IMG/VR virus record: IMGVR_UViG_3300021091_005922
Span: 1 to 34,330 of that record
Length of the DNA stretch: 34,330 nt
Direction: 5' to 3' (one strand)
From: a virus
Shown: piece by piece, positions 12,418-31,566 of the stretch
How the letters are laid out: each line of letters begins with the position of its first letter
Position numbering within the stretch: the first letter of the stretch is position 1
Translations under genes and position numbers: made by a program
The notes under the pieces: generated by a model
What the model saw: only the letters and a program-made list of their open reading frames with translations
Databases searched by the model: none
Told to the model about the DNA's origin: nothing

Positions 12418-13179
12418 TTATTCGAATATATCAAACTTTTGTTCCAATTTAAGTTTATTGTAATGTTTTTTGACGGCCTGCATTGAGGTCGTAAGCTGTT
12501 TTGGACTAAGGCCTGATAATTCTCTAATGTATAGAAGGATTGCGCTCTTGTTGAGAATGTCAATATCATTAATGTTTTCAAAGATCGTTATGACAGAATT
12601 TATGCATAACAATTCATTTTCTACTTTGACTCTTGCTCTAATTTCATACATGAGCTTCAGTATGTTTGCAATGTTCTCTGAATTTTCCAAAAAAAAGTCT
12701 TGTGAAGGTATCGTTCCTCTCTCTTCAACAATCTGCAGTTCATTAGTGCTTAAGCCTTTTGGGTCATCTATGCTTACATCCCTGCGTCCACGTTGCGCTT
12801 TTTGTTTTGTCTTTATGATCAACCAGTTCTTTGCAACGACGTTAAAATAAGAGAATGCATTCGTTCCCATCGCTGGATTGAACTTGTGTATCGTCTCAAA
12901 GAGAAAGTTAACGCAATCATTTTTTAGATCTTCATACGTGTCGTGCAGCCCACTAAATTTATGAATGTTGATGAGGTTTTCTACTAGTTTTTCAAATGCC
13001 GGCATTATCTTTACAACATACAGGCTTTCTCTCACTCGCCTATCAGTCGATTTTTGAAATTCTACAATTGCATCTTGAGTTTCGCTAGTAAAGTAAAACC
13101 TAGGATTTGGTGTTGTAGACGTAGGTTCAGTCCCCTTCTGTCGGCGGCGTCTTGTTTTCTTTATTTTTTGTTCTATCAC
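12418..13179 (-). CDS. gp55: Late-transcription sigma factor, T4 gp55-like
   Basis: 253 residues, longer than T4 gp55 (185). After a basic N-terminus (KKTRRRRQKG) comes a region resembling sigma region 2: FYFTSETQDAIVEFQKS, a helical stretch to DTYEDLKNDCVNFLFETIHK, then FNPAMGTNAFSYFNVVAKNW, the conserved core that contacts RNA polymerase and reads the late -10 element. The C-terminus ends EQKFDIFE, a hydrophobic/acidic tail similar in character to the sliding-clamp-binding tail of T4 gp55. The start is GTG at 13179, overlapping the upstream stop (GTGA); no in-frame ATG lies near the N-terminus. It would direct RNA polymerase to the late promoters of the structural genes downstream. I could not find a clear TATAAATA late promoter in the window. 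Confidence 0.85.
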   Translation of the reverse strand: MIEQKIKKTRRRRQKGTEPTSTTPNPRFYFTSETQDAIVEFQKSTDRRVRESLYVVKIMPAFEKLVENLINIHKFSGLHDTYEDLKNDCVNFLFETIHKFNPAMGTNAFSYFNVVAKNWLIIKTKQKAQRGRRDVSIDDPKGLSTNELQIVEERGTIPSQDFFLENSENIANILKLMYEIRARVKVENELLCINSVITIFENINDIDILNKSAILLYIRELSGLSPKQLTTSMQAVKKHYNKLKLEQKFDIFE

Positions 13180-15970: not shown

Positions 15971-16789
15971 TCAAGTGCAATGCTCGGTGCCTTTATATTC
16001 GCACCAAGTGCAAGCATCCCTATTTTTTAGCGCGATCCCTCTTTTCACGGAAGTGATCATATTGCTAACGACTTTCAACGATCGTTTGATCGGGACTTCG
16101 CCGAGAGAAACAGAAAACAACTCGCAGTGCTCTCCTGGCTTTGCTGCCTTCTTAAGAAGGACGAATCCGCAGCGGACATTCTTCATATCTACATGAGGAT
16201 TCTTTTGACACCAATAGTTCTTATAGAGAGCTAACTGGGCCTTCACCATATCGTCGCTACGTTTCTCGCGGAACCATCCTCTCGCGGTTGTTTTCCAATC
16301 AAGAATCCAGTAGATCGTCTCTCCACGCTTTCCTTTTGCCTTGATGACTCCATCGATAAAACCCTTGAAAGCATGAGGGTGGTTTTCGACTGCTTCATAT
16401 AACTGATGTTCTGCGTCGACGACTTCCCATTCTGGGAATGTATCATCTAGGAATTTAGGAACTTCAGCTAAAATTGTTTCTACTTCTTTTTTAGATTTTT
16501 CTAATGATGATGGACTAAAGTCTGGATTTCCTTCATGCTTTGTCCAAGCTTTATCCATGTGCTCAAAAGCAATTTCATGCTTCATCTCACGAGTTAAGAT
16601 GTAATGCTCACATGAAGCGTGAACAGCAGTACCAAAGTCTAACACTGGAGATGGCTTGGATAGATCTACTTTTTTAATATGAACTAAGTTATGTCTATAA
16701 GAACACTCTTTCCAGAGTTTAACTTCTGAAAATGAGACATGAGGCTTACCAGTCGGTAAGACCTGAAAAGCGGACGTTATTTGTTGCAT
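15971..16789 (-). CDS. PD-(D/E)XK nuclease with four iron-sulfur-type cysteines (Cas4/AddB-like)
   Basis: 272 residues. The fold is seen from SFSEVKLWKECSYRHNL at 19-35, FGTAVHASCEHYI with H57, GFIDGVIK with D146, ILDWKTTARGW with D164 and K166 (the D-x-K catalytic pair), and AQLALYKNY with Q185. Four cysteines, C29 near the N-terminus and C260, C263 and C271 at the C-terminus, match the 4Fe-4S arrangement of Cas4 and AddB nucleases. It probably is a single-strand or end-processing exonuclease in recombination or replication. It lies alone among glycan genes. I start at the ATG at 16789; GTG at 16792 is in frame too. The ATG lies in the loop of a perfect 14-bp inverted repeat and has no Shine-Dalgarno. 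Confidence 0.85.
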   Translation of the reverse strand: MQQITSAFQVLPTGKPHVSFSEVKLWKECSYRHNLVHIKKVDLSKPSPVLDFGTAVHASCEHYILTREMKHEIAFEHMDKAWTKHEGNPDFSPSSLEKSKKEVETILAEVPKFLDDTFPEWEVVDAEHQLYEAVENHPHAFKGFIDGVIKAKGKRGETIYWILDWKTTARGWFREKRSDDMVKAQLALYKNYWCQKNPHVDMKNVRCGFVLLKKAAKPGEHCELFSVSLGEVPIKRSLKVVSNMITSVKRGIALKNRDACTWCEYKGTEHCT

Positions 16790-16811
16790 CACTTAATAAT
16801 AACGTCCGCTT
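16768..16811 (-). promoter_or_regulatory. Perfect 14-bp inverted repeat with nuclease start codon in the loop
   Basis: Arms at 16768-16781 and 16798-16811 are exact reverse complements (AAGCGGACGTTATT and AATAACGTCCGCTT), separated by 16 bases. On the transcript the upstream arm lies between the dehydrogenase stop and the nuclease start, the ATG (16789-16787) is in the loop, and the downstream arm encodes codons 4-8. This suggests control of translation initiation or a mRNA processing site. The downstream arm is followed only by a T4 run, so it could also act as a weak terminator. No close Shine-Dalgarno is present. Confidence 0.7.
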
Positions 16812-16821
16812 CATTTTTAGT

Positions 16822-17784
16822 TCAACTGTTAGGTTTCTTAGAAATTGCTCGACCAACAAGTTTTTCCCAATCTCGTTGTGGTCTGACTTCCATATTCTTG
16901 TGCCATGCACCATTCATTACCTTCGGATCAATTCCAAGAGTTTTTGCGATGCTAATTAATGCATTAATATCCTTAACGAAACAGCTTCCTCCAAAACCAA
17001 AAGCAGGTTCACCTGTGTCATCTGCAGGCATTGGTCCAGGGACCTTCCAATGCGAGCTGCCCAACCGCTTGTCGAGTGTAGCATATTCTATGACTTTATC
17101 ATAATCAATGTTTGCCCCTTTGGAATCTAAGGCTTGGCAGATTTGATAGAACTCATTTGCTAGTGCAACCTTCACGGCAAGGTGGATGTTGGTCACATAC
17201 TTCACCATTTCAGCAGTTGTGCTTGATGTCTTGATGATTGGCACGTTTGGAAATGCAGCTTCAAAAACTTGCTTCGCCTTATTGATCCATGGTCGAGGTC
17301 CACCAAGAATGATTCTATTTTGATTTCGCATGTCATCGACAGCGTTTGCCTCCGTTAAGAACTCAGGATTGAAGATGACACGTAATCCTGTCTCAGCAAA
17401 CTTCTTGTTCCACATCTCGACAGACCCAGGCGGAACTGTTGATTTAACGACAGCAATTCTCTCTCCTGGAACTAATGAAAGTTCTGTCAATGCGCCATCG
17501 ACGATGGATAAGTCTGCAGATCCATCATCATACATTGGTGTAGGAAGGCATACAAAATAAACCTTAGAAAATCCAGGTGTTCCACCTTCCTCATTATCAT
17601 GAATTAATTCTGCGATGGATCCGGGGTATCCAGCAACTGGATCTCCATGGCTAGGTAGCGATCCTTTCGCATACTTTCCTGCCTTGTCATAAGCATAGAC
17701 GTCGAATCCACGCTCTGAAAAAACAGTCGTTAACGATCCTCCGACGAATCCTTGCCCAATAACTGCTATTGATTTCTTTTTCAT
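16822..17784 (-). CDS. UDP-glucose/GDP-mannose dehydrogenase family protein lacking the C-terminal domain
   Basis: 320 residues, against about 390-450 for the family. The N-terminal Rossmann loop is GQGFVGG at 10-16. Conserved STVPPG (115-120), FNPEFLTEANAV (138-149), K195 and N199 in AEMVKYVTNIHLA, and the catalytic cysteine C268 in GFGGSCFVKD are all present. The protein then stops after WHKNMEVRPQRDWEKLVGRA, so the C-terminal nucleotide-sugar-binding Rossmann domain is absent. Family members oxidise UDP-glucose, UDP-ManNAc or GDP-mannose to the uronic acid in two NAD-dependent steps. The shortened form may be a phage-typical variant, still active as a dimer, or may act on another substrate. 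It follows the GT2 gene by 38 bases with no strong ribosome site. Confidence 0.85.
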   Translation of the reverse strand: MKKKSIAVIGQGFVGGSLTTVFSERGFDVYAYDKAGKYAKGSLPSHGDPVAGYPGSIAELIHDNEEGGTPGFSKVYFVCLPTPMYDDGSADLSIVDGALTELSLVPGERIAVVKSTVPPGSVEMWNKKFAETGLRVIFNPEFLTEANAVDDMRNQNRIILGGPRPWINKAKQVFEAAFPNVPIIKTSSTTAEMVKYVTNIHLAVKVALANEFYQICQALDSKGANIDYDKVIEYATLDKRLGSSHWKVPGPMPADDTGEPAFGFGGSCFVKDINALISIAKTLGIDPKVMNGAWHKNMEVRPQRDWEKLVGRAISKKPNS

Positions 17785-23096: not shown

Positions 23097-24071
23097 TTAT
23101 TTTGCTTTCTTTACTTGCTCTTCAATCCAAGCATACGTTTTTTCTATGCCTTGCCGAAGAGACAATGAAGGTTTCCATCCTAGCTTTTCTTCGATCAATC
23201 TGTTGTCTGAATTTCTTCCCATAACGCCTGCAGGTCCTTCGACGTTTTTTATCTTTAAATCCTTTGAGGAAACTTCAATGATCATTTTTGCAAATTCATT
23301 AATTGAAATCATTTCCTCGGAACCAATGTTTACAGGCCCTTCAAACGTTGAGTCCATCAATCTTCTGACGCCATCGACACATTCATCGACGTACAAAAAT
23401 GACCTAGTTTGAACTCCAGGACCCCACACTTGGATTGTGCCACCCTCTTTGGCTTCTGCGACTTTTCTGCACAATGCAGCGGGGGCTTTTTCTTTTCCTC
23501 CCTGCCACGTTCCTTCAGGACCGAATATGTTGTGAAACCTTGCGACTCTAACTTTTAGTCCATAGTTTCTTGCAAATGAAAAATAAAGTCTTTCGCTAAA
23601 AAGCTTTTCCCATCCGTATTCGCTGTCTGGAGCTGCTGGATATGCTGAGCTTTCGCTGCATAACGGATTTTCAGGATCTTCTTGGTTATATGCTGGATAG
23701 ATGCATGCAGAAGATGAATAAAAGATCTTTGGAGTAATTTTTAATTTTGAAGCAGTGTGAGCAACGTTTAGATTTATAGTCGCAGAGTTATGCATCACGT
23801 CAGCATCATGATCGCCTGTAAAAATGTACCCTGCGCCACCCATGTCTGCAGCAAGTTGATACACTTCATCAAGTCCTGACTCAAGTTGTATGACTTGATC
23901 AACGATTCTAGGATCCCTTAGATCTGCAACGACAAAATCGTCTGCACACGTTTCGCTGAATTCAGGAAGCTTTAAGTCTACGCCTCGAACCCAATATCCT
24001 TCAGATTTAAGGCGCTTTACTAGATGAGATCCTATGAAACCTCCTGCTCCGCAGACTAACGCTGTTTTCAT
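23097..24071 (-). CDS. GDP-mannose 3,5-epimerase-like enzyme
   Basis: 324 residues, near the length of the catalytic core of plant GME. Rossmann GAGGFIG is at 8-14. Family hallmarks are AADMGGAGYI, SSSACIYP with C123, EYGWEKL with Y152 and K156, HNIFGPEGTWQGGKEKAP with K195, QTRSFLYVDECVDGVRRL, and PVNIGSEEMISINEF, then GRNSDN near the C-terminus. In plant GME the corresponding Cys and Lys act as acid/base for epimerisation at C3 and C5, giving GDP-L-galactose (and some GDP-L-gulose). The match along the full length is strong. The gene starts inside the stop of the carbamoyltransferase gene (ATGA). It would supply a GDP-L-sugar to one of the transferases here. Confidence 0.9.
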   Translation of the reverse strand: MKTALVCGAGGFIGSHLVKRLKSEGYWVRGVDLKLPEFSETCADDFVVADLRDPRIVDQVIQLESGLDEVYQLAADMGGAGYIFTGDHDADVMHNSATINLNVAHTASKLKITPKIFYSSSACIYPAYNQEDPENPLCSESSAYPAAPDSEYGWEKLFSERLYFSFARNYGLKVRVARFHNIFGPEGTWQGGKEKAPAALCRKVAEAKEGGTIQVWGPGVQTRSFLYVDECVDGVRRLMDSTFEGPVNIGSEEMISINEFAKMIIEVSSKDLKIKNVEGPAGVMGRNSDNRLIEEKLGWKPSLSLRQGIEKTYAWIEEQVKKAK

Positions 24072-25744
24072 GTCTTCCTTTTTTCAACAATAACTCTATA
24101 ATCGTAAAAATACAAATAATCAATGTTTGTTTTCAAGAAACAGTTGATTGCATGTTCAGGGGTTTCGCATATTGGTTCTCTATCATTAAAGCTTGTGTTC
24201 AGCACCATCGGAACGCCTGAATATTCATTCCATTTTTTGATGAAATTGTAATACCATTTGTTCAAATCTTCAGTAACTGTTTGCAATCTACCAGAACCAT
24301 CAACATGAACGACGCCAGGAACTCTTGACTCCGATCCTTTTTTGAATTGAATGATCTTGTCCATATAAGGACTTTCAACGTCTTTTTCGAACCATTCAGA
24401 GGTGTGCTCTCTTAAAATAGATGGAGCAAAGGGGCGGAACCATGCTCGATGCTTGACTTTTTCATTAATGATATTCTTTATGTTGTGGCTCCTCGGATCT
24501 GCCAAAATGCTTCTGCATCCTAAAGCCCTACGGCCTGACTCTGACCCTCCGCCAAATACAGCTATGATCTTTTCATCACCTAAAAGATGCATCACTTCAT
24601 CATCGCTGCTTTGTCTAGAAGATATCAAATCTGATTTTTTCTGAACATCTGATAGAACTGCTTCTTTAGAAAAGACTTGTCCCAAATATGGAGACAGAAT
24701 CTTGCTGTTACGAGGATTGTCAAGCATGTGATGCCAAACGTATTGACAAGCTCCTAATGTTAATCCTCCATCGTATGGTGTCGGAGTAACATAAATGTTA
24801 TCGATATATTTTGAAAACTTGTCGTACATTTTTCCGACTGCAACAGTGTTTAGAGCGACGCCTCCTGATAAACATAGATTTCTAGACTTGGATGATTTAA
24901 GATAGTGTTCCATCACTTCAAACAAGACTTTCTCTGTTGCTAACTGCAAACCGCCTGCAACGTCGAAAGAATCTTGTTCTGACAAATCTGAAATTTGTTT
25001 TAGCTTTCTGATGTTTTCTCTAGATGATTCTTTGTTTTTTTCAAAATCTATCAATAAAGGCATCAACATCGATGCGTAGTGGTTTGCTTTATTGCTGTTT
25101 GCAAATGATGCCATGGCCATCACTGTTCCTGCCTGAGAACCTCGTGGATATCCAGTGCTGAGACCAAAGATGTTACTAACGCATAAATCCCAACACATTC
25201 CTATGTTGAGGTTATGCTGGCCTGGTTTCATTTCAATTGGATTTATCTTCGTTCCTTTTCCTTCATAGACAAAAAATGACCCACAACGATTTGCATCATT
25301 CGGCGTCGGCTCATGACCTCCGCCGTCAATCGTAAAGATTATTGCATCATCGAGTGTGCTTGAGAAGAAAGCATTAGCTGCGTGACTCGTGTGATGAGAA
25401 ACAAATATGACCTTTCTTCCTCTCGCGGCGCACAGCGACTCAACTTTATTGATACAATTTCTAAAAGCATCATCAGAAACGCCTCCGGGACAGTGCCTGT
25501 CGGTGGGAGGATTTCCGTAAGATCCAAATCTGTGTTTTGACAGAGGAGGCTGACTGACAGTGACCCAATAGTCTATAGATTCTACAATGTCTTTATGGTC
25601 TTCAAAAACATACTCAAGTGTGTTGGACATCGTTTCTTTCATTCTGTTGTAACGTTCTATTTCTGCATGGATGAGAACTTCACCATTCTTCATGATGCAA
25701 TAGGACGCGTCGTGCGATGGCCACCAAGAGCAAACTAAAGTCAT
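24068..25744 (-). CDS. NodU/CmcH-type O-carbamoyltransferase (copy 1)
   Basis: 558 residues with both domains of the family. The N-terminal Kae1-like part has HDASYC at 11-16, the metal-binding HHTSHAANAFFSS with H117 and H121, and FTIDGGG with D140; then GTVMAMASF and LCLSGGVALNTVAVGKM. The C-terminal YrdC-like part contains ESGRRALGCRSILADPR and WFRPFAPSIL. These enzymes make carbamoyl-AMP from carbamoyl phosphate and ATP and pass the carbamoyl group to a hydroxyl, usually on a sugar or antibiotic. It is clearly paralogous to the 544-residue copy at 29932-31566. It sits between the epimerase and a row of glycosyltransferases, suggesting a carbamoylated glycan. An AGGT Shine-Dalgarno-like sequence lies 8 bases before the ATG. 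Confidence 0.92.
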   Translation of the reverse strand: MTLVCSWWPSHDASYCIMKNGEVLIHAEIERYNRMKETMSNTLEYVFEDHKDIVESIDYWVTVSQPPLSKHRFGSYGNPPTDRHCPGGVSDDAFRNCINKVESLCAARGRKVIFVSHHTSHAANAFFSSTLDDAIIFTIDGGGHEPTPNDANRCGSFFVYEGKGTKINPIEMKPGQHNLNIGMCWDLCVSNIFGLSTGYPRGSQAGTVMAMASFANSNKANHYASMLMPLLIDFEKNKESSRENIRKLKQISDLSEQDSFDVAGGLQLATEKVLFEVMEHYLKSSKSRNLCLSGGVALNTVAVGKMYDKFSKYIDNIYVTPTPYDGGLTLGACQYVWHHMLDNPRNSKILSPYLGQVFSKEAVLSDVQKKSDLISSRQSSDDEVMHLLGDEKIIAVFGGGSESGRRALGCRSILADPRSHNIKNIINEKVKHRAWFRPFAPSILREHTSEWFEKDVESPYMDKIIQFKKGSESRVPGVVHVDGSGRLQTVTEDLNKWYYNFIKKWNEYSGVPMVLNTSFNDREPICETPEHAINCFLKTNIDYLYFYDYRVIVEKRKT

Positions 25745-28982: not shown

Positions 28983-29932
28983 TTCTTTACCTGCAGCATT
29001 GATTCAACGACGTCTAGATAAGATCTTATAGCTCTTGTTGAAGACAAAAAATCATAATCAATTTTTGACACAAGATCATCATATCTAGAGACGACTTCAT
29101 CAATAGACTTCAATAGTTCATCGCTAGAAGAGAAAGAAACTCCATGAGATTTACAGCCCTCTACGATTCCACCACCTTCTTTGTGATAGACGACTGGTAG
29201 TCCAGATGATGCTCCTTCAATGTGATGCATACCGCAAGGCTCCCACCTAGAAGCAGTCACATATACGTCATGTTTTCTTAGTTCATCGCCCAAATCTTTA
29301 CCGTGAAGAGGTTTGATGATCTTGGTCGCAGCAGGAGAATATTCTTTTGCATATCTACCGATGTATGTGAATTGATACCTCTCTGGATTTTGACTGCACA
29401 ACATGTCGAGATGTTTGTAAGCATCAAATCCCTTCATCCAGTTGTCACTCCAATGATGCGTGACAATTTTGATTGGATATTGGATGGTTTTATTTTGAAG
29501 ATTTTTTTCAGGATAAAAGTGTGATGAATCGCAACCGTTGTAGATCACACTGCTGTTCTTGTTGAGCCCTTTTGAAATGAAATAGTCCCTCAGCCATCCA
29601 CTGATAAAGACTGTTTCATCTACAATTTGATTTGATGCCAACAACAGACCGTCAATTTCATTTGTGTTCTTTCTTGCATCACACTCATTGATCCTGTGCA
29701 GGATTTTTACCCCTGGATTCCTTTGCTTGTATGCAAAGATTTCATTGATTGAAATTCCAAGATCATCATATCGCGGATCAATCATGACGATCAAATCTAT
29801 GTCATTATGTGTCAAGTCATAGACAATGTGGTGTCCATGTTGAAGCAACGAATCATGGAACGATTTGACAAAATTGTTGCCACCGCCCCATGGACCGGTA
29901 ACAATCTTTCTGTTTATGAGAATCTTAGACAT
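28979..29932 (-). CDS. GT4-like glycosyltransferase
   Basis: 317 residues, GT-B fold. N-terminal MSKILINRKIVTGPWGGGNNFV has the Gly-rich loop; ILHRINECDARKN and SSVIYNGCDSSHFYPEK (about 127-143) mark the inter-domain region typical of family 4, and VTASRWEPCGMHHIEGASSG in the C-terminal half is the donor site with its E-x7-E pair. It is shorter than the other two GT4 proteins in the window, mainly in the N-terminal domain. The ATG shares one base with the TAA of the carbamoyltransferase upstream (TAATG), so the two are probably made together. Confidence 0.85.
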   Translation of the reverse strand: MSKILINRKIVTGPWGGGNNFVKSFHDSLLQHGHHIVYDLTHNDIDLIVMIDPRYDDLGISINEIFAYKQRNPGVKILHRINECDARKNTNEIDGLLLASNQIVDETVFISGWLRDYFISKGLNKNSSVIYNGCDSSHFYPEKNLQNKTIQYPIKIVTHHWSDNWMKGFDAYKHLDMLCSQNPERYQFTYIGRYAKEYSPAATKIIKPLHGKDLGDELRKHDVYVTASRWEPCGMHHIEGASSGLPVVYHKEGGGIVEGCKSHGVSFSSSDELLKSIDEVVSRYDDLVSKIDYDFLSSTRAIRSYLDVVESMLQVKK

Positions 29933-31566
29933 TATTGTTTTCTGCTCAAGATTTTAGAGTACTCTGGGAAGTACAAATAGTCTATCTTTGTTCCGAGGAA
30001 ACATTTAATGGAATGAGAGACGTCTTCACAGATGGGTTCTCTATCATTGAAACTTGTATTGAGGATGATCGGTACTCCTGACTTCTCTTTCCACTTTGTC
30101 AAGAAGTTATGATACCACTCGTTGTCTTCTTTTCTGACGGTTTGAAGCCGAGCTGTGCCATCTTCGTGAACGACTGCAGGAACGAGATGTTTTTTCTCTT
30201 CCTTAAACTTCAGAACAAATTGCATGTATGGACTCTCTTGATAATCAATGAACCATTCATGCGCATCTTCCTCAAGGATAGAAGGCGCGAACGGACGGAA
30301 CCACTTTCTATGTTTCACCTTCTCATTGATGATATCTTTCATATCATGGCGACGAGGGTCGGTAAGGATGCTTCTGTTTCCCAATGCGCGTCTTCCAGAT
30401 TCGCTTTGACCGTTAAATACTGCAACAATTTTTCCTTCATTTAGATGACTGATCATTTCATCTAAAGAGCAATCTTCAACTTGTACAGGAAAGTTTTTCA
30501 CGACTTTCTCAAAGTGATCTTGTGACCATACCTCACCGAGATATGGAGTGAAGTTGTGCTTCCATGTAATCCTTGGATTGTCTAATACCTCGTGCCAAAC
30601 GATCTGTGCAGCACCGATAGGAAGTCCTCCATCATACGGAACAGGCGGAATGTAGATGTTTTCAATCTCGCCTGGAAACCATGATCTAATCTTTCCCATT
30701 GCTACTGAGTTGAGAGCAACCCCACCTGAAATGCACAGGTTTTTTGATTTTACCGGGCTTGAATCGATAGCATACCTGATGATTTGCTTTAGAAGATCTT
30801 CAGTGGCAAGTTGAAGTCCTGCAGCAAGGTCAAATTTATCTTGCTCAGACTTTCTTGCAATCGCAGCCCAAGGTTCAAGATACGGATGAGGTGGATCTGC
30901 ATCGCTAGTTGCACCAGGAGGTTGATTGTGAGGCTTTACACTAGACGGTATGATATCAACCGTCAACATTTTTAAAAAATCTTTATGATACTTCTGAGCA
31001 TCACCAAATGCCGCCATGGCCATGACGGTTCCTTCTTCTCCACCGAGAGGCCATCCGTTTTGAAGTTTGAAGACGTATCTAGTTATTCTTGTCCAAACTC
31101 CACCGATGTTGACTTCATAAGGTTTAAATGACTTCAACTGCTTCATTGAGCGATCTTTTGCATACCAAATCGTGCATGCAGTCTCTCCACCATTTTCATC
31201 CTCAGATCCTCCACCATCGATGGTCAATACGATTGCTTCATCTAGGTTGCTTGAGTAGAATGCATTTGCTGCATGAGCCCTGTGATGAGAAAAGAAGTGA
31301 AATTTTCCGCCATTTTTCTTCGCTACTTCTTCTGCCGTCCTGTAAGATTCCTCATACTGTTTCGTCTTTTTCATCGGATGAACAGAAGCAAAATGCATAA
31401 CTTCATTGAAGTCTAGGCATGCTCTTTCTAGCATAAACTTGACTGCATCACCGGGAGGAGATTTTTCTCGATTGTACCGTTCGTATTCTGCGTGAATCGT
31501 CGGTTCACCGTCTTTTAAAATGCAAAAAGAACAATCATGCCCAGGCCAAATGCCAGCTACTTTCAT
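29932..31566 (-). CDS. NodU/CmcH-type O-carbamoyltransferase (copy 2)
   Basis: 544 residues and full length. Metal-binding HHRAHAANAFYSS has H94 and H98, LTIDGGG has D117; GTVMAMAAF, LCISGGVALNSVAMGKI, ESGRRALGNRSILTDPR and WFRPFAPSIL follow in the order of the family. It resembles copy 1 (24068-25744) along its whole length but many positions differ, so the copies are old paralogs or separate acquisitions, not a recent duplication. Different acceptors are plausible, for example two hydroxyls of one glycan. The start overlaps the HAD phosphatase stop by ATGA. Phage members of the family have been reported to carbamoylate hydroxymethylcytosine in DNA, so a DNA substrate remains a possibility. 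Confidence 0.92.
   Translation of the reverse strand: MKVAGIWPGHDCSFCILKDGEPTIHAEYERYNREKSPPGDAVKFMLERACLDFNEVMHFASVHPMKKTKQYEESYRTAEEVAKKNGGKFHFFSHHRAHAANAFYSSNLDEAIVLTIDGGGSEDENGGETACTIWYAKDRSMKQLKSFKPYEVNIGGVWTRITRYVFKLQNGWPLGGEEGTVMAMAAFGDAQKYHKDFLKMLTVDIIPSSVKPHNQPPGATSDADPPHPYLEPWAAIARKSEQDKFDLAAGLQLATEDLLKQIIRYAIDSSPVKSKNLCISGGVALNSVAMGKIRSWFPGEIENIYIPPVPYDGGLPIGAAQIVWHEVLDNPRITWKHNFTPYLGEVWSQDHFEKVVKNFPVQVEDCSLDEMISHLNEGKIVAVFNGQSESGRRALGNRSILTDPRRHDMKDIINEKVKHRKWFRPFAPSILEEDAHEWFIDYQESPYMQFVLKFKEEKKHLVPAVVHEDGTARLQTVRKEDNEWYHNFLTKWKEKSGVPIILNTSFNDREPICEDVSHSIKCFLGTKIDYLYFPEYSKILSRKQ

What the first reader, a model, noticed from the sequence alone, without database searches (positions are those of the whole stretch)
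16768..16811. Start codon of a nuclease gene presented in the loop of a perfect 14-bp inverted repeat
Arms 16768-16781 and 16798-16811 are exact reverse complements, loop 16 bases, with the ATG at 16789-16787 in the loop, no Shine-Dalgarno, and the downstream arm inside coding codons. It is the strongest inverted repeat I saw in the window and sits exactly at a function change inside the glycan island, in front of the only nuclease gene. It could regulate translation, be an RNase site or act as a protein-binding operator.
Basis: partly seen in the sequence, partly recalled or inferred. Interest (0 to 1): 0.75.

Follow-up and report, generated by a model that had tools for sequence, protein, structure and literature searches.

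The report
Start-codon hairpin over phage nuclease promoter
In a family of freshwater T4-like phages, the start of a DNA-cutting enzyme gene lies on its own promoter and inside a hairpin that can form only in longer RNAs reading in from upstream genes, so the enzyme is probably made only from its own promoter; this resembles a known phage T4 trick, apparently with a 'leaderless' message.

Summary
The inverted repeat is real (14/14 bp, loop 16). It is the longest perfect repeat of its kind in the window, and the sense RNA folds far better than shuffles (z -5.2). The gene encodes a RecB/Cas4-like PD-(D/E)XK nuclease with four invariant cysteines.

About 50 homologues exist in viral contigs. In 38 distinct start regions:
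- A promoter, NTGAAC-N18-TAnnnT, usually ends 6 nt before the ATG, and only one has a Shine-Dalgarno. This predicts a leaderless mRNA starting at about the ATG.
- A co-directional ORF always ends just upstream, so read-through is possible.
- Folding is excessive (18 sequence clusters, mean z -2.1, p = 2e-5), with compensatory changes in close relatives. In distant relatives arm sequence and dyad centre differ completely.

Best reading: the hairpin forms only in read-through mRNA and blocks initiation there, while the promoter's own transcript lacks the 5' arm. This is the T4 gene e / 49 / I-TevI logic. It differs in being leaderless, in using a promoter unlike the phage's late class, and in its fast-drifting arms.

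RNA action, transcription start and timing are inferred. A DNA role is not excluded, but a fixed operator is unlikely. Start-hairpins on other leaderless DNA-metabolism genes are suggestive only. New variant of a known kind.

The parts
16768..16781 (-). 3' arm of the hairpin, inside the first codons of the nuclease gene
   Evidence: exact inverted repeat; conserved pairing in relatives
16782..16797 (-). loop, 16 nt, holds the ATG and the in-frame GTG before it
16798..16811 (-). 5' arm of the hairpin, non-coding, lies in the promoter spacer and -10
   Evidence: compensatory changes
16820..16825 (-). -35 element TTGAAC (TTGAACTAA invariant in 13 close relatives; overlaps the TGA stop of the upstream gene)
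16796..16801 (-). -10 element TATTAT, 6 nt before the ATG
16787..16789 (-). start codon ATG and predicted transcription start (leaderless; inferred)
   Evidence: position 6 nt after the -10; no Shine-Dalgarno
15971..16789 (-). PD-(D/E)XK nuclease gene (RecB/Cas4-like; invariant D146, D164-x-K166, Q185xxxY189 and C29, C260, C263, C271)
   Evidence: (PF12705 E 5.9e-17; phrog_1218, phrog_69 exonuclease)
16822..17784 (-). upstream co-directional gene, UDP-glucose/GDP-mannose dehydrogenase family; source of read-through RNA

Best explanation
The gene's own promoter (TTGAAC-N18-TATTAT) lies between the end of the upstream gene and the ATG and starts transcription at about the A of the ATG, giving a leaderless mRNA that lacks the 5' arm and has an open start. 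RNA that reads through from the upstream glycan genes carries both arms and folds into a stable hairpin around the start codon, so ribosomes cannot begin there. The hairpin uncouples the nuclease from operon read-through and puts it under its own promoter alone. Shown: the hairpin, its conservation as structure, the promoter elements, the read-through geometry. Inferred: the transcription start, leaderless translation, repression in vivo, timing.
For: The promoter is conserved: 33 of 38 distinct homologue starts have at least 5 of 6 of TTGAAC and 36 of 38 have TAnnnT, usually 6 nt before the ATG; only 1 of 38 has a Shine-Dalgarno. All 38 have a co-directional ORF ending 32-165 nt upstream, of several different kinds, and the promoter stays when the upstream gene changes. 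Excess folding: 38 starts mean z -2.82 against -0.08 for 400 other gene starts; by 18 sequence clusters mean -2.12, p = 2e-5. Compensatory changes. Opening -15..+15 in read-through RNA costs 12.5 kcal/mol against 8.7 for 1132 other starts, and opening the first 15 nt of the leaderless RNA costs 1.7 (the two regions differ in length). The one homologue with a Shine-Dalgarno, L042, lacks the strong start hairpin. The same logic is reviewed for T4 e, soc, 49 and I-TevI (PMC3014915; PMC2988022).
Against: No transcript or protein data. Wobble does not prove RNA action: within fixed-register arms G-T 8 against A-C 4, and sense and antisense strands fold equally well over 38 homologues (p 0.90). In some homologues (L015, L017, L024, L025) the whole hairpin lies upstream of the ATG, so it would act by crowding, not by sequestering. 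In the window the ATG is in the loop, unpaired. The window's own opening cost is only in the top 13% of control starts. A few homologues (L002, L014, L026, L028, L041, L044) show little or no excess.
Confidence: 0.62

Rival explanations
1. Terminator: the hairpin ends the upstream transcript just before the nuclease promoter's own transcript begins, insulating the gene at the level of transcription.
For: It follows an upstream stop codon in every homologue, and its 5' arm is missing from the promoter's own transcript, so it would not stop that one. The window has TTTT at the end of the stem.
Against: No T run follows the 3' arm in most homologues (e.g. L001, L015, L021, L024, L025, L027, L035); the scan does not call it a terminator (which allows only loops of 3-8 nt); a 16-nt loop is long for one.
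Confidence: 0.15
2. DNA operator: a dimeric protein binds the inverted repeat across the -10 element and represses or activates the promoter.
For: The repeat overlaps the -10 and start region; pairing evidence does not separate RNA from DNA; T4 I-TevI autorepresses at a site over its promoter (PMC2988022).
Against: Arm sequence, spacing and dyad centre differ between phages (from about -16 to about +1 relative to the ATG), and other genes of one phage that carry such repeats have other arms (L055, L126 and L129, all from G006). A fixed recognition site would not drift so.
Confidence: 0.13
3. RNase processing site: the stem is cut (RNase III-like) to separate glycan and nuclease messages.
For: A 14-bp stem between two genes of one operon is a plausible substrate (general knowledge).
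Against: It lies on the start codon with its own promoter; cutting would not be needed for the leaderless message; stems in many homologues are only 6-10 bp.
Confidence: 0.06
4. Chance or by-product of promoter and codon composition.
For: Some homologues show no excess.
Against: Excess over dinucleotide shuffles in 15 of 18 clusters at z < -1 and covariation above all 500 shuffles and all slides.
Confidence: 0.04

Closest known systems
T4 gene e / soc / 49 / I-TevI start hairpins with an internal late promoter
   Same: A stem over the start region forms only in longer upstream transcripts; a promoter at the 5' arm gives RNA without it; several controlled genes are nucleases (49, I-TevI, SegB, Aeh1 MobE). 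From PMC3014915 and PMC2988022.
   Different: Here the start is apparently leaderless with no Shine-Dalgarno to hide; the promoter has -35 and -10 boxes and is unlike the ATANTTAT motif found before this phage group's tail genes; the hairpin sequence and register drift strongly between relatives.
Leaderless mRNAs with a -10 element next to the ORF (e.g. Deinococcus-Thermus PMC12340547, mycobacteria PMC4633059; titles and abstracts only)
   Same: -10 element adjacent to the start codon, no leader.
   Different: The abstracts as listed do not describe a hairpin built from promoter DNA and the first codons; the papers were not read in full.
Cas4/AddB/RecB-type PD-(D/E)XK nucleases
   Same: Motifs D, DxK, QxxxY and four invariant cysteines, C29 and C260/C263/C271.
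   Different: A free-standing phage gene between glycan genes; no meaningful solved-structure match by sequence.

Membership tests
T4-type hairpin plus internal promoter translation switch | Stable stem overlapping the start region of a gene | tested here: met
T4-type hairpin plus internal promoter translation switch | Promoter placed so that its transcript lacks the 5' arm | tested here: met
   Promoter elements and position only; start site not mapped. In L015, L017, L024 and L025 both arms would be missing.
T4-type hairpin plus internal promoter translation switch | Gene can be reached by read-through from upstream | tested here: met
   co-directional ORF upstream in all 38
T4-type hairpin plus internal promoter translation switch | Internal promoter is a late (gp55-type) promoter | tested here: not met
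   TTGAAC/TAnnnT, not the ATANTTAT motif of the tail genes; that the latter is the late class is inferred
[quoted passage not shown]
   no Shine-Dalgarno; at least one ATG base paired in 20 of 38 predicted folds, ATG in the loop in the window
T4-type hairpin plus internal promoter translation switch | Repression of translation from long transcripts | not testable with these tools
   needs expression data
Intrinsic terminator | G+C-rich stem followed by a T run | tested here: not met
   no T run in most homologues
Rfam families | Score above a gathering cut-off | tested here: not met
   only two sub-threshold hits
Fixed DNA operator | Same half-sites in related phages | tested here: not met
   arms and centre differ

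The most novel reading that the evidence does not exclude
These T4-like freshwater phages use a general device: leaderless NTGAAC/TAnnnT promoters on DNA-metabolism genes, each with its own start-codon hairpin built partly from promoter DNA, which keeps these genes silent in read-through mRNA. Because the promoter is not of the tail-gene (late) type, the timing may be the reverse of T4: the nuclease is made early or middle and late read-through is silenced.
Probability: 0.15. Interest if true: 0.7.

Novelty: new variant of a known kind. Interest (0 to 1): 0.5.

Why it matters
If true, the T4 hairpin-plus-promoter switch is wider than T4 late genes and works with leaderless messages, where there is no ribosome-binding site to hide. 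It gives a clear, testable rule for finding promoter-only genes inside long phage operons, and a case where RNA structure is kept while its sequence and register turn over fast.

Tried and rejected
Nucleotide search of phage records: no match. Protein search found only distant relatives at about 26% identity, in Flavobacterium phage immuto and Microcystis phage Mel-JY01. Genome contigs: none. Actinobacterial host via WhiB: no hit in 9 contigs, so the host stays unknown. Wobble asymmetry as proof of RNA action: inconclusive. A perfect-repeat score alone was weak for many homologues (16 of 38 at p <= 0.05); the energy test is stronger. Regulon test: SbcCD starts show no real excess (mean z -0.40), primase slight (-0.73, but the same without the promoter), FEN with the promoter few (n = 7, mean -1.34; without it +0.25), so a general device is not established; single cases are striking (L126 FEN 13-bp stem, -29.4). 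Literature searches for leaderless plus hairpin switches in phages gave nothing specific.

Full report
What is there. The inverted repeat is exact (16768-16781 with 16798-16811, 16-nt loop), and the minus-strand RNA folds at z -5.2. The window is a 34,330-base virus record. The gene (15971-16789, minus strand) is a PD-(D/E)XK nuclease. Across 19 homologues the invariant residues include D146, D164-x-K166, Q185xxxY189 and C29/C260/C263/C271, the pattern of RecB/Cas4-like enzymes (the class is from general knowledge). Upstream is a UDP-glucose/GDP-mannose dehydrogenase family gene, downstream a glycosyltransferase. A weak late-sigma match lies at 12418-13179.

Relatives. A scan of viral contigs gave 51 loci. 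Printing the sequence around the start showed two things at once: a conserved TTGAAC-N18-TAnnnT ending 6 nt before the ATG, and a hairpin whose letters differ from phage to phage. Of 38 distinct starts, 33 match TTGAAC at 5 or more of 6 places, 36 have TAnnnT, and 1 has a Shine-Dalgarno. By the usual distance from -10 to the start of transcription (general knowledge) the mRNA would begin at about the ATG. In 13 close relatives TTGAACTAA is invariant. It is kept when the upstream gene is another one. In the window this is the only exact match to the pattern.

Structure. Against dinucleotide shuffles the 38 starts have mean z -2.82; 400 other gene starts of related phages have -0.08. Grouped into 18 sequence clusters the mean is -2.12, 15 of 18 below -1, p = 2e-5. 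In the close clade 4 of 14 pairs show changes on both sides, covariation 0.181 against 0.107 +/- 0.016 shuffled, 0 of 500 as high, and the slid controls are far lower. In distant relatives the dyad centre moves from about -16 to about +1 and the arms are unrelated: for example ATAAGGTAAT/ATTACCTTAT in L015, TGCATTGTATG/CATACAATGCA in L027, TCTTGCATTAT/ATAATGCAAGA in L021. This is structure kept without sequence.

Mechanism. All homologues have a co-directional ORF ending 32-165 nt upstream, so read-through RNA is expected. Opening -15..+15 in such RNA costs 12.5 kcal/mol on average (other starts 8.7), while opening the first 15 nt of a leaderless RNA costs 1.7; the regions differ in length, so the two costs are not strictly comparable. 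The logic matches T4 e, soc, 49 and I-TevI (PMC3014915; PMC2988022). The promoter differs from the ATANTTAT motif enriched upstream of genes and found before tail sheath, tail tube and structural genes, so it is probably not the late class; timing is open and may be the reverse of T4.

Limits. RNA against DNA action is not decided: wobble pairs 8 against 4, and sense and antisense folds are equal. A fixed operator is unlikely because the sequence drifts and because other genes of one phage with such repeats carry other arms. A terminator lacks T runs in most homologues. In L015, L017, L024 and L025 the hairpin is wholly upstream of the ATG. Host unknown.

Beyond the nuclease. NTGAAC/TAnnnT promoters next to the start also occur at SbcD-SbcC fusion, FEN-like exonuclease, primase and GapR-like genes. 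Single starts there have strong hairpins (L126, L129, L059, L309), but as groups the excess is weak or absent. This is recorded as a lead, not a result.

Noticed in passing
L083-L151 (relatives G001, G003-G006), upstream of many ORFs: Enriched motif ATANTTAT (ATACTTAT, ATATTTAT, ATAGTTAT) before tail sheath, tail tube and structural genes, likely the late promoter of this phage group.
   Followed up: partly
L088 3281-12697: Three consecutive genes of about 1,000-1,040 aa all match tail sheath families: three tail sheath paralogues in tandem in one phage.
   Followed up: no
L100 8489-11647: SbcD-like and SbcC-like parts fused in one 1052-aa protein.
   Followed up: no
L126 9514-10485 minus: FEN-like 5'-3' exonuclease whose start codon lies in the 3' arm of a 13-bp perfect stem, -29.4 kcal/mol, with a TTGTAC/TAATTT promoter 6 nt before the ATG.
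   Followed up: partly
L006, L019, L027, L046 upstream of the nuclease: A cysteine-rich ORF (CKGC...KQKYC), possibly an HNH-type homing endonuclease, sits directly upstream of the nuclease gene; family not tested.
   Followed up: no
L013 upstream of the nuclease: The upstream ORF looks like an intein end (VVHNCFPKDV) joined to the dehydrogenase tail; not tested.
   Followed up: no
window 24068-25744 and 29932-31566: Two Nol-like carbamoyltransferase genes in one glycan island.
   Followed up: no
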